64,000 nt of DNA, taken from Vogesella sp. LIG4 (GTDB taxonomy: Bacteria; Pseudomonadota; Gammaproteobacteria; Burkholderiales; Chromobacteriaceae). Position 1 is the stretch's first letter. Each line of letters begins with the position of its first letter. The stretch spans positions 3,863,157-3,927,156 of the forward strand of contig NZ_LT607802.1 of assembly GCF_900090205.1 (NCBI RefSeq), in the 5' to 3' direction. The notes beneath the pieces were generated by a model. The model was not told the DNA's origin. It made no database searches and saw only the letters and a program-made list of their open reading frames with translations. The translations under genes were made by a program, and so were the position numbers. Positions 1,355 to 64,000 of the stretch are shown here, in pieces.

Positions 1355-1676
1355 GTTGGCCGCATGGCATCAGCGCAAAGGCAGCGAGCAACCGCTGCCT
1401 TTGTGCGTTTCAAAGCGGACACCAGCAGCCAGCCTGACTCAGTAGCGGCTATAGCGGATGAAGGTTGGCCGCATGGGGCCGGCTCTTGTTTTTGAGCAAG
1501 CCGCATTTGGCTGAATTCTCCCTTGTTTTGCTTGGTTGAGCCTCTTGTTCTTTGTGGCTTCAGCTTACCGCGGCGGGCAGCAGGGCTATGCATCAAAGCC
1601 GGTTTGGCCTACAAGCAAAGACTATAGTGAACGATGGGGAGATACGTAGTCAGCCATTAAGGCAATGGAGGTTGTA
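1355..1676. other. Intergenic gap with terminator and two uptake-like 10-mers
   Basis: This 322-base gap holds a stem-loop at 1374-1386/1393-1405 (13 bp including one wobble pair, 6-base loop, followed by cgtttc), which is a probable terminator for the preceding porin gene. It also holds two direct copies of GTTGGCCGCA, at 1355-1364 and 1464-1473. No gene was recognised in it. Confidence 0.5.
1374..1405 (+). terminator. Probable terminator of the porin-like gene
   Basis: Stem 1374-1386 pairs with 1393-1405 around a six-base loop, ending about 50 bases after the stop codon. The U-tract is weak (three T), so termination may be partial. Confidence 0.5.
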
Positions 1677-1985
1677 ATGTCCTATACCAATCAACTATCA
1701 ATCGCGGTGCTTGCGGGTATCCTGTTCGCCGTTTCCCCTGTTGCGACTGTCTCTGCCGCTAACGTCCATACGGTGACGGGTATGAAGGGGCAGCCCAGCC
1801 AGACAATCGGCAGCCCTCAGACGGGGAGTGTCACACCAGGAAAAGCCAGTGCCGCCCCGGGCTCTGCCTTCAACCCAAACGGGAATGCGGGAACACATTA
1901 CGCGGGTACCCAACCCCAGAACTCCGTAAATCCCAAGAGCGTTTCCCAGTACGATGTCGCGGGTTTTCAGCAGTCCCATAAGTAA
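1677..1985 (+). CDS. Small exported protein rich in Gly/Pro/Gln/Asn, unknown function
   Basis: The chosen ATG at 1677 has a GGAGG five bases upstream; an in-frame ATG at 1665 would put that GGAGG inside the gene. The 102-residue product has a Sec signal peptide (hydrophobic stretch about residues 8-28, cleavage likely after Val-Ser-Ala-Ala). The mature part is a disordered, repeat-like chain of Gly, Ser, Pro, Gln and Asn without Cys. I recognise no domain. It stands alone between the porin-like gene and a convergent operon. The small periplasmic or secreted role is inferred only from the signal sequence. Confidence 0.6.
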   Translation: MSYTNQLSIAVLAGILFAVSPVATVSAANVHTVTGMKGQPSQTIGSPQTGSVTPGKASAAPGSAFNPNGNAGTHYAGTQPQNSVNPKSVSQYDVAGFQQSHK

Positions 1986-2311
1986 GCACTAGGGAATCTC
2001 CCTAGCATCACAGCCGCGCGGACAGTCCACAATGGAGACAGAACGAAGCAGCCGCTCCCACGGCTGCTTACTGGGAGTGTCGAATTTCCGCTCCTGGCCG
2101 ATAGCAGACATTCCATCCCATAGACATCCCACCGCCCCCGCCCTGCCCGCACCACCACCAGCACCCCAGGCAACCGGCAGATACAGACCAAATCAGCCGG
2201 CACTACCCAGCAAAAAAAAGAGGCCCGCCGAAGCGGGCCAACGTCTTGCAGACAGGAAACAGAGAAGCAACGATCCGTACCCGAAAGTACGGTTACAACA
2301 ACACCTACTGC
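1986..2311. other. Convergent intergenic gap with minus-strand terminator
   Basis: Between the exported small protein and the M20 hydrolase gene I see no convincing coding sequence. The only clear signal is the minus-strand terminator at 2211-2240. Confidence 0.4.
2211..2240 (-). terminator. Rho-independent terminator of the RidA/DUF1028/M20 operon
   Basis: On the minus strand a GGCCCGC / GCGGGCC stem (2222-2228 with 2233-2239) closes a TTCG tetraloop and is followed by TCT and eight T. It lies about 70 bases past the stop of the M20 gene. Confidence 0.85.
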
Positions 2312-3478: not shown

Positions 3479-4149
3479 GGGTCTCCTGCCACGCCGTAGC
3501 TGGGCGCTTCCTGCGGCGCCAGTGCCCGGGTGACATAGGCGTCCATCTGCGGCTGGTAGCGCTGCCACAATGCGGCCAACTCAGCGATTGGCGCACCTTC
3601 GGTCCAGTCGATGCGCAGGTCCACCGACGGCCATTCGGTATGCAGCGTCGCCTTGATGCCGGCGGCGTGGATGGGGCCGGCTTCGCCGCCCACGTCCACC
3701 GCGGCCTGCAAGGCGATGAGCAGCCGCTCCGGCAGGCTGCCGCGGCTGTTTTCAAAGGCATCCACCATGGCTTGCGGCAGATCGGGCGTGGCCAGCAGGT
3801 TGCCGCCGGCGGCGCAGTCGCGGCCGCTGGCGGCGCTGAATATGCCCAGTGCGTGGCGGCCGGTAATCACCTGCGGCGTGCCCTTGAGCGGCGCCAGCAC
3901 CAGCTGCCGCCACTCGATAAACGGGTCTGCGGCCAACAGGCTGGCGCGCAGCGTGTCCCCATCCTGCCCGGCAGCCATCAGCTCCAGCGCCAGCGGCCCC
4001 AGCATGGGGTTGGTCACGTTCTGACTCAGCGCGGCACCGACCCCGGCCCGCACATTGGCGCAGCGGCTGGCTACGCAAATGCTGGACGAGGCCAGGGCCA
4101 CGCCGACCATGCCCGTTTCCGGGCAGCGGGCAGCGATGGAGAAAGTCAT
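3475..4149 (-). CDS. DUF1028 (Ntn-hydrolase fold) family protein
   Basis: The 224-residue product begins MTFSIAARCPETGMVGVALA, the N-terminal pattern I associate with DUF1028, a family with an Ntn-hydrolase-like fold and no settled reaction. Conserved Gly-rich loops (GVGAALSQN, GPLALELMAAG) follow. The start at 4149 was preferred over upstream starts because it has GAGGAGC before it and forms an ATGA overlap with the end of the ridA-like gene. Its own stop overlaps the M20 start in the same way. The three overlapping genes probably act in one pathway. The hydrolytic role is inferred from fold and context. Confidence 0.7.
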   Translation of the reverse strand: MTFSIAARCPETGMVGVALASSSICVASRCANVRAGVGAALSQNVTNPMLGPLALELMAAGQDGDTLRASLLAADPFIEWRQLVLAPLKGTPQVITGRHALGIFSAASGRDCAAGGNLLATPDLPQAMVDAFENSRGSLPERLLIALQAAVDVGGEAGPIHAAGIKATLHTEWPSVDLRIDWTEGAPIAELAALWQRYQPQMDAYVTRALAPQEAPSYGVAGDP

Positions 4150-4664: not shown

Positions 4665-5930
4665 TTATTGATTACGCTGCCCCGCATCGCGGTAGGCGGC
4701 GTACTTGCGCTGGGTGGCGATGTGATCGGCAATCAGCTTGGCGTCGTGCCACACGCCCCAGATGAAGGTGGAGCCACGGCGCGACAGCCACGGCAGGCCC
4801 ACGAAGTAGACGCCCGGCTCGCTGGACACGCCACGCTGGTGCTTGGGCTTGCCCTTGTCGTCGAAGGCACTCACCTGCAGCCAGCTGTAGTCCACGGCAA
4901 AGCCGGTGGCCCACACCACGCTGGTGATGCCGGCCTTGGCCAGGTCGAGTTCCAGCACCGGGTTGGTGAGGCAGTCCGGGTCCGGCAGCATGCGGCGCGC
5001 TTCCGGCTCCAGCGGCAGGTCCAGCCCGTTGCGCTCGATGTAGGCATCGGCCGCATCCAGCAGCTCCAGGTAGTTGGCGTCGCCGCGGGCAATGTTGGCC
5101 GCAAGGTCCGGCTGGAAGCTCACCACACCGTTCTCGAACGCCTTGGTCATGCCCACCAGGGTCATGCCCTCATGCGCCAGGCGGCGGAAATCGATGGTTT
5201 CACCGCCACGCGCGCCGCTCACGGCAATGGTGACGTGCTCGGTGCCCGGCTTCATCGCCGCAGCGTCCCACTCGCCCAGCACACCCAGCCACCAGCAGAA
5301 GTCGCGGTTGCGGTAGGCACGCGGCGGGCGGTCGTGTGCGCCTACCGACAGGTATACCTTCTTGCCGGCGCGCTGCAGCTCGTCGGCGATCTGCACGCCG
5401 GAGGAGCCGGCGCCCACCACCAGTACAGCGCCTTCCGGCAATTGCGCCGGGTTGCGGTACTGCGCGGAGTGGATCTGCACCAGGCCATCGTCCTTGGGCG
5501 CTACCGGCGGAATGATCGGCTTCTGGAACGGGCCGGTGGCAGCCACCACGCGGCTGGCCTCGATCACCCCGGCCGAGGTTTCCACGGTAAAGCCCGGGCG
5601 GCCAACATTGCGGGTAACTTTCTTCACTTCCACCCCGGTGCGAATCGGGGCGTTGAATTTCCTGGCGTAGGCTTCGAAGTAATCGGCTACCTTTTCCTTC
5701 GGGATGAAGGCATCCGGGTCGGCGCCTTCGAACTCCAGGCCGGGGAAGCGGTCGTGCCAGGCCGGGCCGTTGCACACCAGCGAATCCCAGCGCTCACTGC
5801 GCCAGCGTTCAGCGATACGATTACGTTCCAGCACGATATGCGGCACGTCGAGCTTGCTCAGGTGTTCGCTCATGGCCACGCCGGCCTGGCCGGCGCCGAT
5901 CACCAGCGTGTCTGTCTTTTCGATTGCCAT
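4665..5930 (-). CDS. FAD-dependent monooxygenase (CzcO/FMO-like flavoprotein)
   Basis: The 421-residue product has an N-terminal FAD motif (VIGAGQAG, about residues 9-16), the WATGF/ATGPF-type motifs of FMO and Baeyer-Villiger relatives, and a second dinucleotide motif (VVGAGSSGVQ, about residue 170) for NADPH. The start at 5930 follows AGGAGAGAG. Such enzymes oxygenate nitrogen, sulfur or carbonyl substrates. It is the first gene of the minus-strand operon that ends with the M20 hydrolase, and is divergent from a LysR gene, so substrate-induced catabolism is the simplest reading. Confidence 0.75.
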   Translation of the reverse strand: MAIEKTDTLVIGAGQAGVAMSEHLSKLDVPHIVLERNRIAERWRSERWDSLVCNGPAWHDRFPGLEFEGADPDAFIPKEKVADYFEAYARKFNAPIRTGVEVKKVTRNVGRPGFTVETSAGVIEASRVVAATGPFQKPIIPPVAPKDDGLVQIHSAQYRNPAQLPEGAVLVVGAGSSGVQIADELQRAGKKVYLSVGAHDRPPRAYRNRDFCWWLGVLGEWDAAAMKPGTEHVTIAVSGARGGETIDFRRLAHEGMTLVGMTKAFENGVVSFQPDLAANIARGDANYLELLDAADAYIERNGLDLPLEPEARRMLPDPDCLTNPVLELDLAKAGITSVVWATGFAVDYSWLQVSAFDDKGKPKHQRGVSSEPGVYFVGLPWLSRRGSTFIWGVWHDAKLIADHIATQRKYAAYRDAGQRNQ

Positions 5931-7001: not shown

Positions 7002-7673
7002 TTAGCGGGCCTGCTCGCGGCACAAGGCTTCACAGGGGGTGCCGTCGTGATTGGCATCCAGCCGGCTCAGGCCGCACACCTGCAGGTGATAGCGCGCTTC
7101 GGCACAGCTGCGCATCTGGCTGCAGCGCTGCTTGCTGCCACACAGCCAGTTACCGTTGGCCGCATCCGGCTGCACCTCGTTCTCAGGCGGCATGCGGCCA
7201 ACCTTGTCGCCATGGCGCCAGTCCCACGGCGCCACCGGCCGGGCATCCGCCCACAGCCCGGCGCCCTCGGCCCGCGCCGCCCGTTCTGCCGCGTAGTAGC
7301 CGGCCTCGTGCGCATACTGGCGGTACACCCAGGCCCAGCCATCGCGCACCTGCTGCAGGTTGATGTCCGCGCCATCCAGCAGCACCCGCGCCACCAGCCG
7401 GCCGTACTGGTCCACATCCTGCCGCTGCAGTGTCACCTCGCGGCCGAACACCCGCGCCGCCAGCGCCGCCTTGGCACGCTGGCCGTAGGGCTGCGCCGTT
7501 TCGGGGGCATCGACCTGCCCCAGCCGCACGCGCAGCGCGCGCCGCCCGGCCAGGCATTGCAGGGTATCGCCATCCAGCACCGCCACCACCCGGCAGCCGA
7601 TGTCCCGCGCCGCCGCGCTGGCCGGCAGCGCCAGCGGCCACAGGCAGAGCGCCAGCAGGCAGCGCCACCTCAT
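7002..7673 (-). CDS. Secreted thermonuclease family protein with excalibur-type C-terminal motif
   Basis: The 223-residue product starts with a signal peptide (WRCLLALCLWPLALPASA). An SNase domain follows with VLDGDTL, RVRLGQVDAPE and DQYGRLVARV, placing the catalytic Arg and Glu as in staphylococcal nuclease. The last 40 residues have five Cys and LDANHDGTPCEALC, the DxDxDGxxCE pattern of excalibur calcium-binding domains. The start at 7673 overlaps the stop of the upstream AraC gene (ATGA). The role is probably extracellular or periplasmic nucleic acid degradation. Confidence 0.8.
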   Translation of the reverse strand: MRWRCLLALCLWPLALPASAAARDIGCRVVAVLDGDTLQCLAGRRALRVRLGQVDAPETAQPYGQRAKAALAARVFGREVTLQRQDVDQYGRLVARVLLDGADINLQQVRDGWAWVYRQYAHEAGYYAAERAARAEGAGLWADARPVAPWDWRHGDKVGRMPPENEVQPDAANGNWLCGSKQRCSQMRSCAEARYHLQVCGLSRLDANHDGTPCEALCREQAR

Positions 7674-9730: not shown

Positions 9731-9740
9731 GTTGGCCGCA
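9731..9740 (-). repeat. Uptake-like 10-mer, single intergenic copy
   Basis: This is an exact GTTGGCCGCA (read as TGCGGCCAAC on the minus strand), 98 bases upstream of the microprotein start and at the edge of the AT-rich patch. It is one member of the window-wide family described in the findings. Confidence 0.7.
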
Positions 9741-10754: not shown

Positions 10755-11690
10755 CTACCGCTGCAAAAACCCCGCGATGCGCTGGTAGTTGGCCGCACAC
10801 ACTTCCGGCAGCAGAGCCTCCAGCAGCATGAAGGCGTGGATCTGCGCCGCTTCGCAGTGGTAGTCCACCGCCACGCCGGCGGCGGCGAGTTTGCGCGCAT
10901 ACACTTCGCCTTCGTCCAGCAGCGGGTCGAAGCCGGCGGTGATCAGCAGCGTGGGCGGGTGGCTGGCAGTGATCTCGCCATGCAGCGGCGAGGCGGCCAC
11001 GCGGTCGCCGCCCAAGCGGAAGTAATGCCCGAAGTACCAGCCGATGCGCTCCGCCTCCAGCAAATATCCCTGCCCCAGGCGCTGGATGGAGGGCTGGTTC
11101 AGCGTGTAGTCCACGCTGGGGTAGATCAGCAGCAGGCGATCGCAGGCCAGTTCAGGATCATGCTGGCCGCGCTGCGCCAGGGTGGCCGCCAGCGCCGCGC
11201 CGCCGGAATCGCCACCCAGGGTGCGCTCGCGCCGGTAGCGCACGCCGGCCGCATCCAGCACCGGCCATAGCTGGCGCAACACCAGCGCCACGTCGTCCAG
11301 CGCCGCCGGGTACGGATTTTCCGGCGCCAGCCGGTATTCCACTGCCACCACGATGTGGCCGCTGCTTGCGGCCAACCTGCGGCATACCGGGTCGTAGCTG
11401 CTGACGCTGCCGGCCATGTGGCCGCCGCCGTGGCAGTACACCAGCACCGGCCGCGCTTCGTCCGGCGCCGGGTGGTAAATGCGCAGCGGCACCGGGCAGT
11501 CGCCGCCTTCCACCATGGCCTCGTTCACCCACGGCAGCGCCGGGCCGGGTGGCAGCATGGCCCCGATCAGCGCTGCCAGCGCCTCGCGTGCGCCTATCGG
11601 TGTGTTCACCCAGCCGGCGGCCAGACGCTCGGCCTGTGCCGCGTTTACCCTGGCCAGCCAGGCGGCTACGGCGGGATGCAAATCAGCCAT
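10755..11690 (-). CDS. Alpha/beta hydrolase of the hormone-sensitive-lipase (HSL) family
   Basis: The 311-residue product has the HSL oxyanion motif HGGGH (about residue 85), the nucleophile elbow GDSGG (about residue 160), then the Asp in AGFDPLLDEG and the His in QIHAF. The start at 11690 follows GGGAGAACA and overlaps the last codons of the MFS gene by eight bases. It is probably a cytoplasmic esterase acting on small esters. Coupling with the exporter suggests a linked role such as detoxification. Confidence 0.85.
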   Translation of the reverse strand: MADLHPAVAAWLARVNAAQAERLAAGWVNTPIGAREALAALIGAMLPPGPALPWVNEAMVEGGDCPVPLRIYHPAPDEARPVLVYCHGGGHMAGSVSSYDPVCRRLAASSGHIVVAVEYRLAPENPYPAALDDVALVLRQLWPVLDAAGVRYRRERTLGGDSGGAALAATLAQRGQHDPELACDRLLLIYPSVDYTLNQPSIQRLGQGYLLEAERIGWYFGHYFRLGGDRVAASPLHGEITASHPPTLLITAGFDPLLDEGEVYARKLAAAGVAVDYHCEAAQIHAFMLLEALLPEVCAANYQRIAGFLQR

Positions 11691-12924
11691 ATTGTTCTCC
11701 CAGCATGCGGTCGCGCTGCGCCAGCGACGGGAACCAGCGCATCCACAGCACCACCACCAGCAGCGTGCCCACGCCGCCGGCCACCACCGCCGGCACTGTG
11801 CCCAGCCAGGCGGCGGTAACGCCGGATTCGAATTCACCCAGCTGGTTGGAAGCGCCGATGAACAGCGAATTCACCGCGTTCACCCGGCCGCGCATCTCGT
11901 CCGGCGTTTCCATCTGCACGAAGGTACTGCGGATCACCACGCTGATGATGTCGGAGGCGCCCAGCACCAGCAGCGCCAGCAGCGACAGGCCGAAGTGGCT
12001 GGACAGGCCGAAGCCGATGGTGGCGAGGCCGAACATGGCCACGGTGGCGAACATGATGCGGCCAACCTTACGCTCCACCGGGTTGCGCAGCAGCCAGGCC
12101 GACATCGCCAGCGCGCCCACCGATGGCGCGGCGCGCAGCAGGCCCAGCCCCCACGGGCCGGTGTGCAGGATGTCGGCAGCAAACACCGGCAGCAGCGCGG
12201 TGGCGCCGCCCAGCAGCACGGCAAACAGATCCAGCGAAATGGCGCCGAAGATATCCGGCCGGCTGCGAATGAAACGCACCCCGGCCAGCAGCGAATCCAG
12301 CGTTACCCGGCGGCCATCCGCCACATGGCGCGGCACCGGCAGGCCCAGTACCAGCAGCACGCCGGCGCCGAACATCAGCGCATCCAGCCCGTAGGTAAAC
12401 GGCGCGCCAATGGCGAACAGCAGGCCGCCCAGCGCCGGCGCCACCACGGTGGCCACCTCGTTGGCCGAGGCTGCCGCCGCCACCGCGGACGGCAGCAGCG
12501 CCGGCGGCACGATGGTGGGCAGCAACGACTGCATGGTGGGCATGTCGAAGGCGCGGCAGGTGCCGATCAGCACCGAGACCGCAAAGATCAGCCCGCGCGT
12601 AACCGGCAGGCCGATGCCGGCGCTGCCCAGCAACAGCAGCAGCGCCGCCGCGGCCTGCAGCGCCATGCTGGCTGCCGCGATGTAGTGCCGCGGGTAGCGA
12701 TCGGCCACGGTGCCGGTAACCAGCACCAGCAGGATGCGCGGCAGGAACTGCAGCAGGCCCACCAGGCCCAGGTCCAGCGTGCTGCCGGTGAGGCTGTAGA
12801 CCTGCCAGCCCACCGCCACCCCCATGATCTGGAAGCCGCCGGTCAGCAGCAAGCGCGCCAGCCAGAAGCGCCAGAACGGCTTGCTGTGGCGCAGGGAGGT
12901 TGGTGAATCTTGGTACAGGTTCAT
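11683..12924 (-). CDS. MFS exporter, EntS-like
   Basis: The 413-residue product has about twelve membrane segments. The loop GTVADRYPRHYI matches the MFS loop 2-3 motif, and ETPDEMRGRVNAVNSLFIGASNQLGEFESG is the region I associate with EntS-type (enterobactin exporter-like) proteins. A true siderophore role is not supported because no siderophore genes are nearby. The start MNLY at 12924 lacks a strong ribosome site. It is divergent from tas and coupled to the downstream esterase. Confidence 0.75.
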   Translation of the reverse strand: MNLYQDSPTSLRHSKPFWRFWLARLLLTGGFQIMGVAVGWQVYSLTGSTLDLGLVGLLQFLPRILLVLVTGTVADRYPRHYIAAASMALQAAAALLLLLGSAGIGLPVTRGLIFAVSVLIGTCRAFDMPTMQSLLPTIVPPALLPSAVAAAASANEVATVVAPALGGLLFAIGAPFTYGLDALMFGAGVLLVLGLPVPRHVADGRRVTLDSLLAGVRFIRSRPDIFGAISLDLFAVLLGGATALLPVFAADILHTGPWGLGLLRAAPSVGALAMSAWLLRNPVERKVGRIMFATVAMFGLATIGFGLSSHFGLSLLALLVLGASDIISVVIRSTFVQMETPDEMRGRVNAVNSLFIGASNQLGEFESGVTAAWLGTVPAVVAGGVGTLLVVVLWMRWFPSLAQRDRMLGEQYG

Positions 12925-12986: not shown

Positions 12987-12996
12987 GTTGGCCGCA
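12987..12996 (-). repeat. Uptake-like 10-mer in the MFS/tas divergent region
   Basis: This is an exact GTTGGCCGCA between the divergent MFS (12924) and tas (13134) starts. Confidence 0.7.
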
Positions 12997-14212: not shown

Positions 14213-14247
14213 AAGGTTGGCCGCACGCAGAACGTGCGGCCAACCTT
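14213..14247. terminator. Inverted pair of uptake-like 10-mers acting as terminator
   Basis: GTTGGCCGCA at 14216-14225 and TGCGGCCAAC at 14235-14244 form the core of a 15-bp perfect stem (14213-14227 with 14233-14247) with loop CAGAA, flanked by AA and TTT. It lies 27 bases past the tas stop, the layout Neisseria uses for paired DUS terminators. Confidence 0.75.
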
Positions 14248-15738: not shown

Positions 15739-16527
15739 TCAGTCAAAATCCAGCACCACCGCCGCATGCTTGTTGCTTACCGCGATGTAATGCCGGGTCT
15801 GCAGCGAGAGTTCCTGATTCGACGTCAGCATCCCGAATGCGCTGTGCAACGCCAGCCGGCGATATTGCTCCACCACCCGGCCGCCGGATGCCAGCCGCTC
15901 CCGTGCCTGCAGCAGGTCGGCATACTCGTGTTCGGGTAACTGCAGCAGCGCGCCCGAATCGCCCAGCATCTTCTGCACATAGGCCTCGGCGTTCGGGCCA
16001 TGCGCACAGCAGACGTCGCCCTGCGGCATGCGGCCAACTGGCGAGTAAGCCAGCACGCTCACAATCCGGCTGCGGGCACTGGCTAATGTTTCCCGCAGCA
16101 AGACGGCAGAAGACAAAGGCTTGTCTTCCACCAGCAGCCGCGTTATCCCGCGGTCGTTGATCGCTTCCAGTATCTGCTCCGCATCGTCATCGACGATGAC
16201 TTCCTTATGCGGCGGCCACACATCCAGTTGCGCGTGGCTCCCCTGGCAGTTGCCGACATGGAAAATGAAATAGTCCGGGTAGATTCTGAGCTTGTCCGGC
16301 TCATTCCCCAGCTGCAGCCGATGCGCATCGTAAAACCTGGTGGTAGCCGCCATCAGCAGGGAACTCACCCCCATGGCACCACATGGCCGGTTCACCACCA
16401 CGCCAATACGATCGGACGTTTGAAACCCCGGAAGCACATCGTCCAGGCTGGCCTGCCGGCCTTGCAGCTGAAAATCAAAATCGCGGGCAGAAATTACATT
16501 GGTGGCATGCAAGGCAAGCTCCTTCAT
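15739..16527 (-). CDS. Hypothetical protein, 262 residues
   Basis: I do not recognise a family. The protein is soluble-looking and acidic, with no signal peptide. Notable local patterns are GVVVNRPCGAMGVSSLLMAATTRFYDAHRL, FHVGNCQGSHAQLDVWPPHKEVIV and a C-terminal IAVSNKHAAVVLDFD. The middle (HVGNCQGSH) could be a ligand or metal site. It is divergent from the cupin gene at 16726, with 198 bases between. GC is lower than the window average. The ribosome site is weak (GGCGGTAA). Confidence 0.6.
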   Translation of the reverse strand: MKELALHATNVISARDFDFQLQGRQASLDDVLPGFQTSDRIGVVVNRPCGAMGVSSLLMAATTRFYDAHRLQLGNEPDKLRIYPDYFIFHVGNCQGSHAQLDVWPPHKEVIVDDDAEQILEAINDRGITRLLVEDKPLSSAVLLRETLASARSRIVSVLAYSPVGRMPQGDVCCAHGPNAEAYVQKMLGDSGALLQLPEHEYADLLQARERLASGGRVVEQYRRLALHSAFGMLTSNQELSLQTRHYIAVSNKHAAVVLDFD

Positions 16528-17070: not shown

Positions 17071-17541
17071 GTTTTCAGCGCGCCATGCTGGGCGCCATCC
17101 TGGGCACCCAGCAGGCTCCGCACCAGCCGGAGCCTCACGGGCTTGCCCACTGTCTGTGCCCCCTCTCGCCTGCCTCGCGCTGCATCTCCAGCAGCCAGTA
17201 GCTCTCCCGCCGCCACACCCTGCCCTATAAACCCCATATCCGCCTGCAGCCAGCTGAATTGCCTGGCACACCCCCAATTAAATAGCCCGCATCAGCCTCG
17301 CCAAAATCCGCATTACCTCGCATTACATAAAGTAATGCCAAAGTGAAAATAAAGCGCATTGACGCTTTTTTCCTCCTCGCCAAATATTTCATTACCAAAA
17401 GCGCATTGCCGTTTGCTGCCCGAAACGCTGATTTTCCAGTGAATCAGCTAGTTGGCCGCATCGCATCCGGCATATATCAACAGCGAAATAACAGGCCGCC
17501 ACGGTATTCATTCAATCAAGGCAATAGAGGAGTCCGCAGCA
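17071..17541. promoter_or_regulatory. gbcA upstream region with candidate operator
   Basis: This 471-base gap has no gene. It contains GCATTAC-ATAAA-GTAATGC (7-bp arms, about 17320-17338) followed by CCAAAGTGAAAA, about 200 bases before gbcA. The half-sites and the following CCAAA recur upstream of the GbdR-like gene and proV (see findings). An uptake-like 10-mer lies at 17451-17460. The gbcA ribosome site GAGGAG is at about 17526-17531. Confidence 0.45.
17451..17460 (-). repeat. Uptake-like 10-mer, intergenic
   Basis: This is an exact GTTGGCCGCA, 81 bases upstream of the gbcA start. Confidence 0.7.
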
Positions 17542-19893: not shown

Positions 19894-20197
19894 TTTCCGC
19901 AGCGCGGCGCCACGGCCAGCCATGCGGCCAACCCTGGCGGCATGCCTGACAGTGGCAGGCCGGCCGCCAATAGCCGGGCCGATGGCGGCCATTCATGCCA
20001 GCTTGCACATCACCATGATGTGTCATTTTTTTGGCAGCCATGCATCACCGTGGCCGGGAAACCCGTGGCATTACTTGCGCAAAAAACCCAAGCTCAACAG
20101 CATAAGTTGTGCAAAATCAAGATTTTCCGGGTTAAAATTTAAAGCAAAAGCGAAGTGATGTATCTTTCAATTCACCACCCCACCTGATAGCAACACC
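19894..20197. other. Intergenic region after gbcB
   Basis: This gap of 304 bases carries one uptake-like TGCGGCCAAC at 19923-19932 and GC-rich imperfect repeats (19945-20000) that may attenuate transcription without a U-tract. Its 3' 120 bases are AT-rich and probably hold the promoter of the next small gene. No coding sequence is seen. Confidence 0.4.
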
Positions 20198-20569: not shown

Positions 20570-21250
20570 TCAGGCAGGCACCCGCTTGCCGGCTGCCGAC
20601 ACCAACTTGGGGTCGAGCAGGCCCAGCAGCGCATTCTTCGATGGCGGAGGCAGCTGTGCCACGGCAAAGTTGTACGGCGCCGCCACCTTGCGCAGCAGCA
20701 GCCACAGGTAGTCCGCAAAGCTGCGGCGGATCAGCAGGAACACACCATCGTCCTCCAGCCGCAGCACGGTACCACCCGCCTTGCCCAGCACGGTGCTCAC
20801 CGCCTGGCCCACCGCCAGCGATTCGAAGTCGTACACCCCCATGTGGCGCAGCACGGTCACGTGTTCGGCACCGGACAGCGACACGCAGGTCAGCCCGCCG
20901 CTGTTGTCCACCGCGTGGGCGAACAGGCCGGCGAAGGCTGCGTCGAATGCGGCCAACCTGGCGCCCAGTTCGGCGCGACGGGTCACCAGCAGCAACTCGT
21001 CCGGCGACACCCAGACCAGCACGCCGCCTTCGCCGCTGCTGAACCGTTCCGCCGCCGGCACTGCCGCACCGGTGACGCTGCTGACCGCGGCGGCGATGGC
21101 GGCATCCGCCAGCTCGCCACGGATGGCGATGTAGCCCAACAGCGGCAGTTCGTTGGCGCGCGCCAGCTGGCTGTTGTCGGCCAGTACGGTTTCCGCCGCC
21201 AGGTTGAAGTTCACCAGCGGGGACTGCAGGGAGGGTTGGAAGTTAGGCAT
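20570..21250 (-). CDS. soxG: Sarcosine oxidase gamma subunit
   Basis: The 226-residue product has the GcvT-like fold pattern of SoxG (LPLLGYIAIRGE, LVWVSPDELLLV, SLSGAEHVTVLRHMGVYDF, LLIRRSFADYLWLLL). It is the small structural subunit of heterotetrameric sarcosine oxidase. The start at 21250 follows AAGGGG and overlaps the end of soxA by eight bases, so it is translationally coupled. It is the last gene of soxBDAG, followed by a strong terminator. Confidence 0.9.
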   Translation of the reverse strand: MPNFQPSLQSPLVNFNLAAETVLADNSQLARANELPLLGYIAIRGELADAAIAAAVSSVTGAAVPAAERFSSGEGGVLVWVSPDELLLVTRRAELGARLAAFDAAFAGLFAHAVDNSGGLTCVSLSGAEHVTVLRHMGVYDFESLAVGQAVSTVLGKAGGTVLRLEDDGVFLLIRRSFADYLWLLLRKVAAPYNFAVAQLPPPSKNALLGLLDPKLVSAAGKRVPA

Positions 21251-44953: not shown

Positions 44954-44992
44954 GCAGGGTTGGCCGCAAGCTGCGCATGCGGCCAACCCTGC
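44954..44992. repeat. Inverted pair of uptake-like 10-mers
   Basis: GTTGGCCGCA at 44959-44968 and TGCGGCCAAC at 44978-44987 form a 15-bp perfect stem (44954-44968 with 44978-44992) with a 9-base loop. It lies directly beyond the terminator of the solute-binding protein gene, so it may reinforce termination. Confidence 0.75.
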
Positions 44993-48179: not shown

Positions 48180-48203
48180 CTTGCGGCCAACGTTGGCCGC
48201 AAG
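48180..48203. repeat. Back-to-back inverted uptake-like 10-mers (24-bp perfect palindrome)
   Basis: TGCGGCCAAC (48182-48191) and GTTGGCCGCA (48192-48201) abut with no spacer, giving a 24-bp palindrome 15 bases past the LysR stop. With no loop it may be a weaker terminator, but a separate terminator follows immediately. Confidence 0.8.
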
Positions 48204-51919: not shown

Positions 51920-53401
51920 TCAGTGCTGATACCAGCCCAGCACGCCCGGCTGCAGGTTGATGTTCACCTGCTTCACCTGCTGGTACTCCTGCAGGCCGTT
52001 CACCCCCAGGTCGCGGCCATAGCCGCTCATCTTGTAGCCACCCCACGGTGCCTCATTAAAGGTGGGGTTGTAGCAGTTCACCCAGGTCACCCCGGCGCGA
52101 ATCTCGCGGATCACGCGCAGCGCCCGTGCGCCATCGCTGGTGAACACACCGCCGGCCAGGCCGTACGGTGTGTCGTTGGCCATGGCGATGGCTTCGGCTT
52201 CGGTGCGGAAGGTCTGCACCGCCACCACCGGGCCAAACACCTCCTCGCGCACCAGGTCCATGTCGCGGCGGCAGTTGTCGAACACGGTTGGCCGCACGAA
52301 GTAGCCCCTGGCGCACTCGCCCTCGGTGTAGCGCTCGCCGCCGCACACCAACCGCGCACCCTGCTGCTTCGCTCGTTCGATATGCGCCAGGATCTTGTCC
52401 ATCTGCCCTTGCGACACGATGGCGCCCATGTCCGGGTCGTCCAGGCCGTTGCCGATGGTCATGGCGTTGGCGCGCTCGGCCAGGCGGGCGACGAAGGCAT
52501 CCTTGATGCTCTCTTCGATCAGGATGCGCGAGCCGGCGGAGCACACCTCGCCCTGGTTGAAGAACACGCCGATCATTGCCCATTCCACCGCGCCTTCCAG
52601 GTCGGCATCGGCAAAGATGATGTTGGGTGACTTGCCGCCCAGCTCCAGCCCCACCTTCTTGAGGTTGCCCACCGCCGCGCTGGCGATCAGCTGGCCGGTA
52701 CGGGTGCTACCGGTGAAGGTCACCATGTCCACGTCGTGGCTCTCCGCCAGCAGCTGGCCGGCGGCCGGCCCGGTGCCCAGCACCAGGTTGGCGGTACCGG
52801 CAGGCAGGCCGGCCGCATGCAGGATCTCGAACAGCACCACGGCCGACAGCGGTGTCAGCTCGCTGGGCTTGAACACCACGCAGTTGCCAGCCGCCAGCGC
52901 CGGCGCCAGCTTCCAGGTGGCCATCAGCAGCGGGTAGTTCCACGGCGTGATCAGCCCGCACACGCCTATCGGCTCGTGCATGCTGTAGGCGTGCATCGGG
53001 CCGAAGGCATCGCTGACCTCGTACACCCCGCCCTGCGGCACGCTGATCAGCCCGGCGTAGTAGCGGAAGCAGGCGGCGGCATCGTCCACGTCGCCGCGCG
53101 CCTCGCGCAGCGGCTTGCCGTTGTCCAGGCAATCCAGCCGCGCCAGTTCGTCGGCGCGCGCCTTGATGCCATCGGCCACGCGGTGCAGCAGCTCCGCCCG
53201 CCGCGGTGCGGCCATGCGCCGCCATTCACCCTTGCCGTAGAACGCCGCGTGGGCGGCGGCAATCGCCTGGCGGGTATCTTCCGCCGTGCTGTCGGCCACG
53301 CGGGCGATCACCTCGCCGTTGGCCGGGTTGATCACGTCGCGGCTGGCACCGCCCAGCGCCAGCTGCCATTCACCGTTGATGTAGTTTTTGCGGATTTCCA
53401 T
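51920..53401 (-). CDS. NAD-dependent aldehyde dehydrogenase (betaine/amino-aldehyde type)
   Basis: The 493-residue product has GLITPWNYPLLMATWKLAPALAAGNC, FTGSTRTGQ, LELGGKSPN (catalytic Glu) and GEVCSAGSR (catalytic Cys), with a Gln/Asn-rich C-terminus. It resembles betaine-aldehyde and amino-aldehyde dehydrogenases. The start at 53401 follows GGAGGAGAAC. It is the last gene of the PotF-to-ALDH operon and probably oxidises the aldehyde produced by the FAD oxidase at 53867. A betaine aldehyde role cannot be excluded, but no choline dehydrogenase is nearby. Confidence 0.85.
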   Translation of the reverse strand: MEIRKNYINGEWQLALGGASRDVINPANGEVIARVADSTAEDTRQAIAAAHAAFYGKGEWRRMAAPRRAELLHRVADGIKARADELARLDCLDNGKPLREARGDVDDAAACFRYYAGLISVPQGGVYEVSDAFGPMHAYSMHEPIGVCGLITPWNYPLLMATWKLAPALAAGNCVVFKPSELTPLSAVVLFEILHAAGLPAGTANLVLGTGPAAGQLLAESHDVDMVTFTGSTRTGQLIASAAVGNLKKVGLELGGKSPNIIFADADLEGAVEWAMIGVFFNQGEVCSAGSRILIEESIKDAFVARLAERANAMTIGNGLDDPDMGAIVSQGQMDKILAHIERAKQQGARLVCGGERYTEGECARGYFVRPTVFDNCRRDMDLVREEVFGPVVAVQTFRTEAEAIAMANDTPYGLAGGVFTSDGARALRVIREIRAGVTWVNCYNPTFNEAPWGGYKMSGYGRDLGVNGLQEYQQVKQVNINLQPGVLGWYQH

Positions 53402-53480
53402 TGTGTTCTCCTCCGTGCCGCTTGCTGTAGGGGTGAAGCTTTCAGGTTGCTGGCTCGCACAATGCTGCGCGAGCGGGCAT

Positions 53481-53866: not shown

Positions 53867-55267
53867 TCAGGAGTCAAAGCCCAAACCCAGGGCATCCATG
53901 GTCCGCAACATCAGATTGCGCTTGCCGTGGTTGTGGTCGGCGCGGTTCAGCGACCAGCGCGTGGCCTGCACCGCGACATAGGTCAGCGGCTCCGGCGGGA
54001 ACGGCATCGGCATCTCGCGCACCATGCGCAAACGGGTGCGCTCGGTATCCAGCCCGGCCAGCTTGTCCAGCAGCACGTTGGCCGCAAAGCGGGTGGCGCC
54101 TACCCCCAGGCCGGTAAAGCCGGCGGCGTAGGCCACCTTGCCGCCATGCGCCTGCGCATAGAAAGCACAGAAGCGGGTGGAGGTATCGATGGCGCCGGCC
54201 CAGCGGTGGGTAAAGCGCAGCCCTTCCAGTTGCGGGAAGGTGGTAAAGAAATGGCTGGCCAGCAGCTCGAAGCTGGCCGCTCGCTCCTCGTACTGCTCCT
54301 CGATGCGGCCGCCGAAGTTGTAGATGGCATCGTAGCCGCCGAACAGGATGCGGTTGTCGCGGCTCAGCCGGTAGTAATGGAACTGGTTGCCCATGTCGGC
54401 AAGGCCCTGGCGGTTGCGCCAGCCCACTGCGGCCAACTGCGCCGGGCTCAGCGGCTCGCTCATCAGCACGTAGTCGTATACCGGGATGGTGTGCCATCGA
54501 TAGCGGCGCAGCAGCGAGGGAAAGGCATTGGTCGCCAAAATCACCTGCTGCGCGACCACCCGCCCGCCGGCGGTGTGCAACGCCACCTGCCTGCCCGACG
54601 AACGCAGCCGCTCCACCCGCGACTGCTCGTGGATTTCCACCCCCAGCTCGCGGGCAACACGGGTCAGCCCTGCGGCCAACTTGCCCGGGTGCAGCATGGC
54701 GGTGCCGTCGCGGTCCCAGTGCCCGGCAAGGAAGGTGGGCGATGCCACCTCGGCACGCACCTCGTCGGCGGACAGGCAGCCTTCATCCTGCAGCAGCTCG
54801 GCCTGGTACGGTTCCACCGCCACCACCATCACCCCGCTGCGCTCGAAATCGCAGTCGATGCCGTAGCGCTGCAGCGTGGCCTCGATCTCGTCCAGGTTTT
54901 GACGCCCCAGCGCCTCCAGCTGCTCGAATTCCTCCGGCCAGCGGCTCATGCCGTTTTCCTCGCCGTGGGTGATGCTGGCCTCGCAGAAGCCGCCGTTGCG
55001 GCTGGAGGCGGCCCCGCCGCACTGCCCGGCTTCCAGCAGCAGCACGCGGCGCTGCGGCTCGCGCTCCTTGGCCAGAATGGCCGCCCACAAGCCCAGGTAG
55101 CCGCCGCCGACAATGGCCAGCTCGGTAGTCACCTCGCCCTGCAGCGGCGCAAAGCCGGCACGGCTCGGCACGTCGTCCAGCCAGAAGGAGCGGTTGATGG
55201 AGCCGGCCAGGGCCGACTGGATGACGCTCTTTTGCGGGGCGTGCCGCTCGAAAACGGTTTGAAGCAT
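53867..55267 (-). CDS. FAD-dependent amine oxidase (DAO family, PuuB-like)
   Basis: The 466-residue product has the FAD motif ELAIVGGGYLGLWAAILA (about residues 50-67), GGAASSRNGGFCEAS, and late HRWAGAIDTSTRFCAF and AAGFTGLGVGATRFAAN. It is a DAO-fold amine oxidase like PuuB and the paralogue at 37379. The ribosome site is weak (AGGA at ten bases). It is flanked by an amidase and a cupin in one operon and probably oxidises an amine to an aldehyde. Confidence 0.78.
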   Translation of the reverse strand: MLQTVFERHAPQKSVIQSALAGSINRSFWLDDVPSRAGFAPLQGEVTTELAIVGGGYLGLWAAILAKEREPQRRVLLLEAGQCGGAASSRNGGFCEASITHGEENGMSRWPEEFEQLEALGRQNLDEIEATLQRYGIDCDFERSGVMVVAVEPYQAELLQDEGCLSADEVRAEVASPTFLAGHWDRDGTAMLHPGKLAAGLTRVARELGVEIHEQSRVERLRSSGRQVALHTAGGRVVAQQVILATNAFPSLLRRYRWHTIPVYDYVLMSEPLSPAQLAAVGWRNRQGLADMGNQFHYYRLSRDNRILFGGYDAIYNFGGRIEEQYEERAASFELLASHFFTTFPQLEGLRFTHRWAGAIDTSTRFCAFYAQAHGGKVAYAAGFTGLGVGATRFAANVLLDKLAGLDTERTRLRMVREMPMPFPPEPLTYVAVQATRWSLNRADHNHGKRNLMLRTMDALGLGFDS

Positions 55268-56796: not shown

Positions 56797-58185
56797 TTAA
56801 AAACTGTAGACCGCCTGGGCGCTCAGCACATCGTTATGCTTGCTGGTGGTGCCGTCGGCGCGTTCGAAGCTGCGTACGCTGGAGATGTCATGCCGCGCTT
56901 CCAGCTTCAGTTGCAGCTGGTCGGTCGGGTAGAACAGCAGCGCGGCGGTAATGTCCTGACGCACCGCGCCCTTGCAGCCGCTCGGGTCCAGCGCATAGCA
57001 GGCCGGGTCCACGCCGAAGCCGTTGATCGGGTCGTTGCCGTTGGCACTCAGGCCGATGCTGGGGTTGCCGCCACCGTTCTTGCTGTTGTTCAGGTAGTCG
57101 TAGCGCACGGTCCAGCCCATGCGCCCCAGTGCGGCGGTCTCGAACTTGTGGTGCTTCAGCAGCGAGAAACCCCACCACTGCGCGCGGCCGCCGTTGAGCG
57201 CGCTGTACTCGGCACTGCCGTAGTCGAACTGCGCGGCGCTGATGTCGTCGAGCTGGGTGTTGCTGATGTCCACCTCGGTGTAGGCCACGCGGCCGAAGTT
57301 CGGCGTGCTGCCGGTGTAGTTGCCGCTGGTGCCGCGCGCCAGATAGCCATACCAGCCGATGTCGATGTTGTTGGTGAGCATGTTGTCCACGCGCCAGCTC
57401 AGCGACGGGGTACGGTTGGCCGCATTGTTCACCTGCGACGCCTGGCTGCGCCCGGCCTCGTTGCCCAGCATGGCCTTCACGCTCCAGGCACCCTGCACCC
57501 AGGACGCGCCGGCACCCACGATATTGCTGGGCTCGCTGAAGTCGTACAGCAGGTTGTGGGTGATGTTCACCGTCTGGTTGCTGGCGGCGTACTCGTAGCC
57601 GGCCCAGGACGGAATATCGCCGGCAAACACCTGCCAGTGCTCATCCAGCGGCACTACCGCCTGCGCCGAGTTGAGGATGCTCATATTGCCGTTGCCATTG
57701 CTGTCCAGCGAGGAATACACCCCGGCGCCACGGTCCGGCATGATGGTGATATCCACGTACGGCGCCAGCGGGCCGCTGCCGAAGGTTTTCTTGATGTCCA
57801 GGTAGACATCGCCCAGGTTGGAGGTGTCGTAGTTGTAGCTCTGGCTGCGGTTGGCAAACACGAACGACGCCGACTTGCGCCCCAGGTTGCTGCTGTACAG
57901 CGGGTCGATGTAGCCGCTGATGCTCAGGCCGGCAATCGGGCCGTTCTGCGCATCCTCGGACAGCTTGTCCACCTTCATCGCCGTGGCGCTCACCTGCTGC
58001 GTCAGCGCCTCGTCACTGTCCTGCCGTGCGGTGACCGACTGTTGCAACGCGGTTTTCAGGCTGTCGATCTCACGCTGCATCGCCTCCAGCCGCTGCTGCA
58101 TCTCCTGCATGCCCGGCTGGGCCTCTGCGGCCAACGTCAGCAGCGGTGCCGCCCCGATCAGGCCGGCCAAAAGTGTTTTCTTCAT
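56797..58185 (-). CDS. Outer membrane beta-barrel (porin-like) protein with N-terminal coiled coil
   Basis: The 462-residue product starts with a signal peptide (MKKTLLAGLIGAAPLLTLAAEA), then a coiled coil (about residues 24-75; MQEMQQRLEAMQREIDSLKTALQQ) and a barrel ending in Tyr-Ser-Phe. It is paralogous to the left-edge protein. The coiled coil recalls the trimerising or peptidoglycan-linking segments of some porins. The start at 58185 follows GGGGAAATC. It sits between the PotF-like and amidase genes, so it probably imports the same substrate through the outer membrane. Confidence 0.8.
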   Translation of the reverse strand: MKKTLLAGLIGAAPLLTLAAEAQPGMQEMQQRLEAMQREIDSLKTALQQSVTARQDSDEALTQQVSATAMKVDKLSEDAQNGPIAGLSISGYIDPLYSSNLGRKSASFVFANRSQSYNYDTSNLGDVYLDIKKTFGSGPLAPYVDITIMPDRGAGVYSSLDSNGNGNMSILNSAQAVVPLDEHWQVFAGDIPSWAGYEYAASNQTVNITHNLLYDFSEPSNIVGAGASWVQGAWSVKAMLGNEAGRSQASQVNNAANRTPSLSWRVDNMLTNNIDIGWYGYLARGTSGNYTGSTPNFGRVAYTEVDISNTQLDDISAAQFDYGSAEYSALNGGRAQWWGFSLLKHHKFETAALGRMGWTVRYDYLNNSKNGGGNPSIGLSANGNDPINGFGVDPACYALDPSGCKGAVRQDITAALLFYPTDQLQLKLEARHDISSVRSFERADGTTSKHNDVLSAQAVYSF

Positions 58186-58193
58186 GATTTCCC

Positions 58194-60617: not shown

Positions 60618-60662
60618 AAAAAGGTTGGCCGCAAGCTGTACGGGCTTGCGGCCAACCTTTTT
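60618..60662. terminator. Inverted uptake-like 10-mer pair as bidirectional terminator
   Basis: GTTGGCCGCA at 60624-60633 and TGCGGCCAAC at 60647-60656 form a 19-bp perfect stem (60618-60636 with 60644-60662, loop TGTACGG) with five A and five T at the ends. It is 24 bases past the stop of the 75-residue gene and convergent with the livK-like gene, the clearest terminator of the four pairs. Confidence 0.9.
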
Positions 60663-60776: not shown

Positions 60777-60800
60777 GCTTGGCGACGGGTGTCGCGGGAA

Positions 60801-62030: not shown

Positions 62031-62150
62031 GTCGTTTATCTTCTCTATTTGTGTCAGGTTTTGCTCAGGCCAATGGATTTTGTCGATTGGCGAACGTTTA
62101 CAACAAGGCAGGCGCATTATTTCAATGCAGCCCGCCCCGCGCAAGTCCAA

Positions 62151-64000
62151 TCAGTCTCCAATGCTCATCAGACTCGCATTACCGCCAGCAGCCGTGGTAT
62201 TCACGCTAATGGCGCGTTCCACTACCAGTCGGTGCAGGTTGTAACCACCCTGCTCGACCAGCAACAGCGGAATCAGGGCGCCGTCGCGGCGGGCCAGCGT
62301 CTGGCGCAGCTGCTCGGCATCCGGGCCGGCATACAGCACGGCGGTCACATCGGCAGCTTCCACCTTGTCGGCCAGCTGCACTGCGCTCTTGAGCTGTGCG
62401 GCCAACTGCTGGGCAGCGGCGTTGTCCTGCAGCAGCACGCGGTTGCCGGTGGCAAAGGCGGCAGCCACCTGCATCACCAGCGCTTCCAGGTTGTCGGCCC
62501 AGCAGGCCACCAGGCCGCGTGGTGCAAACAGCAGGGTGTTCAGTTCGCCAGTGGGGCCCGGCAGGTTGGCCGCATGGTTCAGCGGCGAGTGGCGGCGTGC
62601 CGCGGCAATCACTTCCTGCAGATGCTTGCGCGCACCGTCATCCAGCTTCAGCTTGGGCAGTGCGGCCTGCAACTGATCCAGCGCGCTGAAATCCACCGCA
62701 TCCGGGCTGGCATCCAGCTTGGCGTCCCAGCTGCCGCCGGTCAGGCGGTACAGGTAGAGCGGGCCACCGGCTTTCGGGCCGGTACCGGACTTGCCTTCGC
62801 CACCGAACGGCTGCACACCCACCACCGCGCCAACGATGTTGCGGTTCACGTAGACGTTGCCCACCTTGACGTTGCTGGTGATGGCATCGATGGTTTCGTC
62901 GATGCGGCTGTGAATGCCGTGGGTCAGGCCGTAGCCGGTACTGTTGATCTCGGCCACCACCTGGTCGATCTGGCTGGCTTCAAAGCGGATCACGTGCAGT
63001 ACCGGGCCGAATACCTCGCGCTCCAGCAGGCGGATGCTGTCGATCTCGAACAGGGTCGGCGCCACGTAGGTACCGCCGGCGCACTCTTCGCTCAGCGTGG
63101 CCTGGTACATGCTGCGGGCGCGGCCCTTCAGGCCGTCGATATGGCGCAGCAGGTTGCCCTGCGCTTCGGCGTCGATCACCGGGCCGATGTCGGTATCGAA
63201 ACGCGCCGGGTTGCCCACACGCATCTCGTCCATGGCGCCCTTGATCATGGTCACCACCTTGTCGGCGATGTCGTTCTGCAGGTACAGCACGCGCAGTGCC
63301 GAGCAACGCTGGCCGGCGGAATCGAAAGCGGACGACAGTACGTCGGTCACCACCTGCTCCGGCAGCGCCGAGCTGTCCACGATCATGGCGTTCTGGCCAC
63401 CGGTTTCGGCGATCAGCGGTACTTCTTCGCCACGGCCGGACAGCGCGCGGTTGATGATCTGCGCCACTTCGGTGGAGCCGGTGAAGATCACGCCCTTGAT
63501 GCGCGCATCGGTAGTCAGCGCGGCGCCGACCACTTCGCCGCGGCCCGGCAGGAACTGCAGCACGTCGCGCGGTACGCCGGCTTCGTGCAGCAGGCGGATG
63601 GCGTAGCCGGCGATCAGCGCGGTCTGCTCGGCCGGCTTGGCCAGCACCACGTTACCGGCGGCCAGCGAGGCGGTTACCTCGCCGATGAAGATGGCCAGCG
63701 GGAAGTTCCACGGGCTGATACATACCACCGGGCCCAGCGCCGGGTTGCGCTGGTTGTCGAATTCGGCACGCACGTGGGCGGCGTAGTAGCGGCAGAAGTC
63801 CACCGCTTCGCGCACTTCGGCGATGGCGTTGTTCAGGGTCTTGCCGGCTTCGCGCACCGCCAGGCCCATCAGGGTCGGCATGTGCTCTTCCATCAGGTCG
63901 GCCATGCGGTCCAGGCACTGCGCACGCTTGGCCGGCTCGGTAGCGGCCCACAGCGGTGCGGCGCGCACGGCGGCCTGCAGCGCCACTTCCACGTCCTCGC
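62151..64000 (-). CDS. putA: PutA, C-terminal L-glutamate-gamma-semialdehyde dehydrogenase part, truncated by window edge
   Basis: About 616 residues are visible and the frame is open to the right edge, so the proline dehydrogenase half lies outside. Diagnostic segments are CISPWNFPLAIFIGEVTASLAAGN, FTGSTEVAQIINRAL, LIAETGGQNAMIVDSSALPEQVV (catalytic Glu) and SAFDSAGQRCSALRVLYLQ (catalytic Cys), then a C-terminal ALDH-fold-like domain ending in MSIGD, as in longer PutA types. It oxidises pyrroline-5-carboxylate/glutamate semialdehyde to glutamate. The stop at 62151 is about 120 bases before the livK-like start. Confidence 0.93.
   Translation of the reverse strand, partial: EDVEVALQAAVRAAPLWAATEPAKRAQCLDRMADLMEEHMPTLMGLAVREAGKTLNNAIAEVREAVDFCRYYAAHVRAEFDNQRNPALGPVVCISPWNFPLAIFIGEVTASLAAGNVVLAKPAEQTALIAGYAIRLLHEAGVPRDVLQFLPGRGEVVGAALTTDARIKGVIFTGSTEVAQIINRALSGRGEEVPLIAETGGQNAMIVDSSALPEQVVTDVLSSAFDSAGQRCSALRVLYLQNDIADKVVTMIKGAMDEMRVGNPARFDTDIGPVIDAEAQGNLLRHIDGLKGRARSMYQATLSEECAGGTYVAPTLFEIDSIRLLEREVFGPVLHVIRFEASQIDQVVAEINSTGYGLTHGIHSRIDETIDAITSNVKVGNVYVNRNIVGAVVGVQPFGGEGKSGTGPKAGGPLYLYRLTGGSWDAKLDASPDAVDFSALDQLQAALPKLKLDDGARKHLQEVIAAARRHSPLNHAANLPGPTGELNTLLFAPRGLVACWADNLEALVMQVAAAFATGNRVLLQDNAAAQQLAAQLKSAVQLADKVEAADVTAVLYAGPDAEQLRQTLARRDGALIPLLLVEQGGYNLHRLVVERAISVNTTAAGGNASLMSIGD

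What the first reader, a model, noticed from the sequence alone, without database searches (positions are those of the whole stretch)
1355..62574. A dispersed 10-mer (TGCGGCCAAC) behaves like a new DNA uptake sequence
Seen: hand scanning finds about 41 exact copies of TGCGGCCAAC or GTTGGCCGCA. Starts: 1355, 1464, 3571, 3928, 5094, 7155, 7193, 9731, 10788, 11367, 12057, 12987, 14216, 14235, 16029, 17451, 19923, 20948, 23282, 26713, 27805, 29152, 30697, 33158, 34586, 36075, 39508, 44959, 44978, 48182, 48192, 52287, 54077, 54428, 54671, 57415, 58136, 60624, 60647, 62397, 62565. Roughly 0.25 would be expected by composition (my estimate at about 63% GC). Orientation is balanced (about 22 to 19), and the word runs through genes of every family. 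Many copies extend to TGCGGCCAACC(T). Four more match nine of ten bases in the core (13150, 33991, 44236, 45888). Known: Neisseriaceae use DUS (GCCGTCTGAA and dialects) bound by ComP for transformation. Inference: read as AGGTTGGCCGCA, the word aligns without gaps to 12-mer DUS dialects as I remember them (8 of 12 with AGGTCGTCTGAA, 7 of 12 with AAGCAGCCTGCA), but lacks the CTG core thought universal. This may be an undescribed DUS dialect in a Chromobacteriaceae-like genome.
Basis: partly seen in the sequence, partly recalled or inferred. Interest (0 to 1): 0.95.

Follow-up and report, generated by a model that had tools for sequence, protein, structure and literature searches.

The report
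New DNA uptake tag in Vogesella
A ten-letter DNA word is repeated 2,895 times in the chromosome of a Vogesella bacterium, sister words are abundant in genomes of six related genera, and together they are likely self-recognition tags by which these bacteria would prefer DNA of their own kind when taking up DNA from outside.

Summary
In detail: 41 exact copies in the window (22 and 19 by strand; one coordinate off by ten) and 2,895 in the whole 4.15-Mb genome, against 8 for the reversed word. All 13 genomes held of the genus carry 1,871-2,895 copies; 48 genomes of nine other genera of the family carry 8-58. The genus is Vogesella. Sister words share the core AGGTTGGCCG...AG in the Crenobacter cavernae genus...AA in Gulbenkiania and some or all genomes of four other genera. 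Called genes hold 180 copies against 6.2 in codon shuffles. A diverged ComP-like minor pilin is encoded elsewhere in the genome; by sequence and predicted fold its nearest solved structures are Neisseria ComP, the DUS receptor. A loop signature (N-x-D-x-G) in it is present in 21 of 23 word-bearing genomes and 0 of 33 wordless ones tested, though shared descent confounds this. The words have CCG where all eight published dialects have CTG. Best reading: a second group of uptake-sequence dialects, outside Neisseriaceae in the narrow sense. Uptake itself is untested.

The parts
1355..1364 (-). uptake-sequence copy
   Evidence: exact match
1464..1473 (-). uptake-sequence copy
   Evidence: exact match
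3571..3580 (+). uptake-sequence copy
   Evidence: exact match
3928..3937 (+). uptake-sequence copy
   Evidence: exact match
5094..5103 (-). uptake-sequence copy
   Evidence: exact match; inside called gene 4665-5960
7155..7164 (-). uptake-sequence copy, inverted pair with 7193
7193..7202 (+). uptake-sequence copy, inverted pair with 7155
9731..9740 (-). uptake-sequence copy
   Evidence: exact match
10788..10797 (-). uptake-sequence copy
   Evidence: inside called gene 10755-11837
11367..11376 (+). uptake-sequence copy
   Evidence: inside called gene 10755-11837
12057..12066 (+). uptake-sequence copy
   Evidence: inside called gene 11683-12954
12987..12996 (-). uptake-sequence copy
   Evidence: inside called gene 12900-14186
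14216..14225 (-). uptake-sequence copy, inverted pair with 14235
14235..14244 (+). uptake-sequence copy, inverted pair with 14216
16029..16038 (+). uptake-sequence copy
   Evidence: inside called gene 15739-16527
17451..17460 (-). uptake-sequence copy
   Evidence: at a gene edge
19923..19932 (+). uptake-sequence copy
   Evidence: exact match
20948..20957 (+). uptake-sequence copy
   Evidence: exact match
23282..23291 (+). uptake-sequence copy
   Evidence: inside called gene 21243-24440
26713..26722 (+). uptake-sequence copy
   Evidence: inside called gene 26170-29715
27805..27814 (+). uptake-sequence copy
   Evidence: inside called gene 26170-29715
29152..29161 (-). uptake-sequence copy
   Evidence: inside called gene 26170-29715
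30697..30706 (-). uptake-sequence copy
   Evidence: exact match
33158..33167 (+). uptake-sequence copy
   Evidence: inside called gene 31472-33490
34586..34595 (+). uptake-sequence copy
   Evidence: exact match
36075..36084 (+). uptake-sequence copy
   Evidence: inside called gene 35868-37361
39508..39517 (-). uptake-sequence copy
   Evidence: inside called gene 38716-39618
44959..44968 (-). uptake-sequence copy, inverted pair with 44978
44978..44987 (+). uptake-sequence copy, inverted pair with 44959
48182..48191 (+). uptake-sequence copy, abutting inverted pair with 48192 (20-base palindrome)
48192..48201 (-). uptake-sequence copy, abutting inverted pair with 48182
52287..52296 (-). uptake-sequence copy
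   Evidence: inside called gene 51920-53596
54077..54086 (-). uptake-sequence copy
   Evidence: inside called gene 53867-55267
54428..54437 (+). uptake-sequence copy
   Evidence: inside called gene 53867-55267
54671..54680 (+). uptake-sequence copy
   Evidence: inside called gene 53867-55267
57415..57424 (-). uptake-sequence copy
   Evidence: inside called gene 56797-58221
   Evidence: inside called gene 56797-58221
60624..60633 (-). uptake-sequence copy, inverted pair with 60647 flanked by A and T runs
60647..60656 (+). uptake-sequence copy, inverted pair with 60624 flanked by A and T runs
62397..62406 (+). uptake-sequence copy
   Evidence: inside called gene 62151-63998
62565..62574 (-). uptake-sequence copy
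   Evidence: inside called gene 62151-63998

Best explanation
The 10-mer TGCGGCCAAC occurs 2,895 times in this Vogesella chromosome and is likely a DNA uptake sequence, a self-tag that would be bound by the cell's ComP-like minor pilin so that DNA of its own kind is taken up by preference. Shown: the copy number, its limits to the genus among the genomes searched, the sister words with the same core in six other genera, the ComP-like gene and its predicted fold. Inferred: that the pilin sits in type IV pili and binds the word (read as the 12-mer AGGTTGGCCGCA), that bound DNA is pulled into the periplasm and passed inward by ComEC, and that recombination of taken-up, tag-bearing DNA is what has spread the tag over both strands, in genes and between them. 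The receptor's beta1-beta2 loop, with the signature N-x-D-x-G, is the most likely place where the word is read. The sister words (ending AA, AG or CA) are then dialects of one system, related to but distinct from the CTG-core DUS of Neisseriaceae.
Confidence: 0.82

Rival explanations
1. The word is an uptake tag, but it is read by another pilin, for instance the FimT/GspH-like minor pilin encoded directly upstream of comP, or by a later step; ComP is a bystander.
For: A GspH-domain pilin (37.3 bits) lies directly upstream of comP in this genome, and the fimT-like, FimV-like and aroB neighbours are found in three of three other Vogesella loci tested. FimT is a DNA-uptake pilin in other bacteria (PMC8897410, title and start of abstract seen in a search listing). 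ComP-like proteins occur in wordless genera.
Against: The ComP-like protein carries the loop signature that tracks the word (the FimT-like one was not tested this way), and its closest solved relatives are sequence-specific uptake receptors. A fimT-like gene was not detected beside comP in the other word-bearing genera (about 1.5 kb on each side, one query, so a diverged one could be missed).
Confidence: 0.1
2. The word is a relic: a former uptake sequence, no longer read, decaying by mutation.
For: Two genomes of another genus (g8: G040, G043) and G047 have mildly raised counts of sister words, as decay would give. Position conservation was not shown.
Against: In this genome 320 sampled copies are exact and no one-mismatch word exceeds 15: decay would leave many near-copies. 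All 13 genomes of the genus keep it.
Confidence: 0.03
3. The word is a structural or regulatory element, such as part of transcription terminators or a REP-type repeat.
For: Close copies are nearly always inverted and mostly outside called genes (51 of 59 paired copies).
Against: Only 59 of 320 copies are in close pairs and 180 lie inside called genes; only 5 of 29 inverted pairs have a run of four T or A beside them; there is little conserved sequence beyond about three flanking bases.
Confidence: 0.03
4. The word is a chromosome-maintenance motif (Chi, KOPS, matS type) or a nucleoid or methylation site.
For: High genome-wide density and even spacing (5-kb bins, variance/mean 0.76).
Against: No orientation bias along the chromosome, unlike Chi and KOPS (recalled); dialects change between sister genera and are absent from close relatives; not palindromic.
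Confidence: 0.02

Closest known systems
DNA uptake sequence (DUS) dialects of Neisseriaceae, read by ComP (PMC3630211: abstract, the section on dialects, passages; dialect letters from passages of PMC7371117 and PMC12061091)
   Same: 10-12-base word, about 1,000-6,000 copies there and 2,895 here, both strands, genes and spacers, inverted close pairs, one main dialect per clade, A and G before the 10-mer, G at +1 and (but for eikDUS) +4, C at +6, G at +8, A at +10 (Vogesella); ComP-like minor pilin in the genome. AGGTTGGCCGAA matches AG-mucDUS and AG-simDUS at 9 of 12 places.
   Different: CCG instead of the CTG core at +6 to +8; TT at +2/+3 and G at +5; the Crenobacter cavernae word ends in G; host family Chromobacteriaceae, while the 2013 survey found no obvious DUS in five genomes outside the narrow family.
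ComP, type IV minor pilin and DUS receptor (PDB 5hz7, 2nba, 2m3k)
   Same: Prepilin N-terminus, long helix, five strands, the motif WPxLP, C-terminal cysteine pair; best PDB match by sequence and fold.
   Different: About 25-29% identity to Neisseria ComP; short DD region; cysteines for one of two disulfides; NxDxG loop absent from the three Neisseria sequences compared.
Uptake signal sequence (USS) of Pasteurellaceae (recalled; PMC12616744, start of abstract seen)
   Same: Abundant short self-tag in a naturally competent group.
   Different: Different word, different class of bacteria, different proposed receptor (recalled but for the receptor); no homology is claimed.

Membership tests
Neisseriaceae DUS (CTG-core dialects) | Most over-represented 10-mer, about 1,000 or more copies, genome-wide | tested here: met
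   2,895 copies, top rank in a 400-kb sample
Neisseriaceae DUS (CTG-core dialects) | Even on both strands, in coding and intergenic DNA, with inverted pairs | tested here: met
   1437/1458; 180 of 320 in called genes, 29 of 30 close pairs inverted
Neisseriaceae DUS (CTG-core dialects) | CTG at positions +6 to +8 | tested here: not met
   CCG in all three sister words; the core is stated for all eight dialects in PMC3630211
Neisseriaceae DUS (CTG-core dialects) | Inverted pairs act as transcription terminators | tested here: inconclusive
   5 of 29 inverted pairs have an adjacent run of four T or A; transcription not measured
Neisseriaceae DUS (CTG-core dialects) | Raises DNA uptake and transformation | not testable with these tools
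   needs an experiment
ComP (DUS receptor) | Type IV prepilin with ComP-like globular domain | tested here: met
   sequence, fold
ComP (DUS receptor) | Pfam PF16732 above the curated cut-off | tested here: not met
   23.8 of 27.3 bits in Vogesella; met in Crenobacter cavernae (62.2) and in Neisseria (42.7). PilE-type pilins pass it too, so it is not specific
ComP (DUS receptor) | Two disulfides and a DD region | tested here: not met
   by alignment only the C-terminal cysteine pair is shared; DD region short
ComP (DUS receptor) | Binds its own genome's uptake word | not testable with these tools
   needs purified protein

The most novel reading that the evidence does not exclude
Tagged, ComP-guided DNA uptake is older than the Neisseriaceae: a second, CCG-core group of uptake dialects runs through seven genera of Chromobacteriaceae and kin, word and receptor have diverged together, the receptor's beta1-beta2 loop (NxDxG) is where the word is read, and lineages that changed this loop have lost the tags from their genomes.
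Probability: 0.5. Interest if true: 0.88.

Novelty: new variant of a known kind. Interest (0 to 1): 0.82.

Why it matters
The eight published DUS dialects share a CTG core, and the 2013 survey listed genomes of Chromobacterium, Pseudogulbenkiania, Lutiella and Laribacter as lacking an obvious DUS. A dialect group with CCG at that place would show that the core is not universal. How ComP reads DNA is still unresolved (PMC12061091, abstract and passages); 56 receptor sequences (23 from word-bearing and 33 from wordless genomes), with a within-genus contrast, give a natural mutational series for that question. It would also give a practical handle (add the 12-mer) for genetics in Vogesella, Crenobacter and Gulbenkiania. 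Among the papers listed by my searches none is seen, by title, abstract start or the passages I opened, to report this word or an uptake sequence in these genera. Searches listed only part of their finds (20 of 44, 20 of 39, 20 of 139, 5 of 6), and only open-licence PubMed Central is held.

Tried and rejected
PF16732 as a marker of the receptor: the strongest hits in this genome (72.6 and 53.8 bits), and the relatives' strongest ones that I read, look like PilE-type minor pilins beside other pilus-assembly genes, and 60 of 61 genomes have a hit over the cut-off whether or not they have words; rejected as a test. The ComP-like gene was the third hit (24 bits). Profile scores do not separate cleanly: the six g8 best hits (78.8-109.5 bits) overlap other pilins (85.5 in G034, 103.2 in G045, 115-124 in four g2 genomes), so ComP presence in g8 is doubtful; in g4 (4 genomes) no hit exceeds 70.7. 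The best hit per genome was used in the loop count; G039 was left out because its frame has an internal stop. The alignment that made the profile came mainly from word-bearing genomes, which favours them in score.

Position conservation between Vogesella species: 29 copies in 49 alignments, 9 conserved, not significant. Terminator role: weak. Viral contigs with an inverted pair of the word: 0, not informative alone. Rfam: no match in the window at gathering scores. Wordless samples: no sister word and no comparably strong word in G003, G005, G013, G017, G024, G031 (40% masked), G032, G039, G040, G041, G042, G044; G023 and G039 show 12-mers with 6-9 copies that I did not resolve. These are samples of 60-100 kb, so a rare dialect could be missed. 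The gene caller is crude and covers 77% of the bases; it misses some genes, so the noncoding density (1.31 per kb against 0.50) is probably too high. The structure match rests on one alignment that held Neisseria sequences.
Full report
1. Observation. One search confirms 41 exact copies of TGCGGCCAAC in the window, 22 and 19 by strand; 40 of 41 listed starts are right. One search gives 0.51 expected from an order-3 Markov model. One search places the window at 3,863,157-3,927,156 of a single 4,147,242-base contig that holds 1437 + 1458 copies (one per 1.4 kb) and only 4 + 4 of the reversed word. In 400 kb from 20 spaced places it is the highest-ranked 10-mer (279 against 3.0).

2. Which genome. 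One search compares 61 genomes of the family: 13 of 13 in the genus have 1,871-2,895 copies, 48 of 48 in nine other genera have 8-58. Vogesella is in Chromobacteriaceae, Neisseriales. In a 399-genome sample of the order no genome outside the genus exceeds 52 copies.

3. Sister words. De novo counts in samples, mostly of 100 kb, found words with the same core in other genera: GTTGGCCGAG (72 per 100 kb) in G034; GTTGGCCGAA in G037 (49), G038 (44), G048 (28), G010 (35) and G045 (61). Whole-genome counts: AG word 1,940 and 1,590 in both g5 genomes; AA word 1,368 in G010 but background in the nine other g2 genomes, 579 and 2,168 in g6, 1,245 in g7, 1,851 in g9, 1,104, 183 and 893 in g10. So 23 of 61 genomes carry a word (I count G047 with 183) and 38 do not. 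G010 carries a second word, GTTTGCCGAA (21 per 100 kb). In all dialects the commonest bases before the 10-mer are A and G, which gives 12-mers AGGTTGGCCGCA, -AG and -AA, built like the AG-type DUS 12-mers of Neisseriaceae.

4. Not codon use, not a repeat family. With a simple gene caller on 464 kb, 180 copies lie in called genes; shuffling synonymous codons within genes leaves 6.2 +- 2.5. The peptides read through it vary. Sequence information fades within about three bases outside the word, and one-mismatch words are rare. Orientation shows no heterogeneity among 21 segments (159/161, p 0.87). 29 of 30 neighbours closer than 60 bases are inverted; 16 of 16 in the sister-dialect samples. Copy density falls in low-GC 5-kb bins (Spearman 0.58 with GC; 1.7 against 3.6 per bin in the 7 of 92 bins under 58%), as expected if recent arrivals lack the tag, though the word is itself GC-rich.

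5. Positive control. The same tool found YCGTCTGAA at 2,079-4,507 copies in nine genomes of one genus (f44/g53, taken to be Neisseria) of the 399-genome sample and 13 in this genome.

7. Receptor and word. A profile of eight ComP-like proteins finds a best hit of 78.8 bits or more in 57 of 61 genomes (doubtful in g8), so the pilin is probably older than the words or outlasts them. In the stretch between two strands (residues 90-101 in the model, signature at 95-101), taken to be the beta1-beta2 loop, 21 of 23 word-bearing genomes have N-x-D-x-G-x-[YF]; 0 of 33 wordless ones do (G039 left out for an internal stop, four g4 genomes without the protein). The two exceptions are G060, a genome of the Vogesella genus with NTDPD, and G045. 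G010 has the signature and the word; the nine other genomes of its genus have neither. The counts are not independent: on the tree of 59 proteins the label needs about four changes. In Neisseria ComP the tip of this loop is one of three elements that NMR ties to DUS binding (PMC12061091, passage). That it reads the word here is my inference.

8. Relation to known DUS. Against seven known dialects the AA word matches AG-mucDUS and AG-simDUS at 9 of 12 places, the Vogesella word at 8; random 12-mers reach 9 or more in 0.8% and 8 or more in 5.9% of cases over both strands, five shifts and seven dialects. G+1, G+4, C+6, G+8 and (not in Crenobacter cavernae) A+10 agree; +7 is C instead of T, so the CTG core becomes CCG. 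PMC3630211 (abstract, one section and passages) states that CTG is shared by all eight dialects and needed in meningococci, and that five genomes outside the narrow family had no obvious DUS. By that feature the word is not a member of the CTG-core dialects; it works like one, and the receptor suggests common descent.

9. Verdict. A new group of likely uptake-sequence dialects. What is missing is an experiment: nothing here shows that Vogesella is competent or that the word matters for uptake.

Noticed in passing
L225-L229 (G010): A second abundant word, GTTTGCCGAA (21 per 100 kb), coexists with GTTGGCCGAA (35): two dialects in one genome, as PMC3630211 reports for Simonsiella.
   Followed up: partly
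L235-L239 (G045): The palindrome GCTTAAGC (48 in 100 kb counted on both strands, 1.6 expected) is strongly over-represented beside the uptake word; unexplained.
   Followed up: no
L170-L174 (G023): 12-mers such as CTACCGCTTCGG and GTTTGCCGAGCC recur 8 times in 100 kb; the second resembles the uptake core but counts are low. Could be a longer repeat.
   Followed up: no
G003, G005, G007, G008: Wordless g2 genomes carry a second ComP-like pilin at 115-124 bits.
   Followed up: no
G039:C1:465054-465458: The best ComP-like frame of this wordless genome has an internal TGA.
   Followed up: no
window 48182-48201 and nine other places in the 464-kb sample: Two copies abut to form a 20-base palindrome (10 neighbour pairs at spacing 10).
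   Followed up: partly
G040 and G043 (g8), G047 (g10): Mildly raised counts of the sister words, possibly decaying or incoming tags.
   Followed up: partly
window 43139-44413 (-): Glycine betaine/proline transporter ATPase, about 83-84% identical to proteins on Burkholderia and Paraburkholderia replicons.
   Followed up: no
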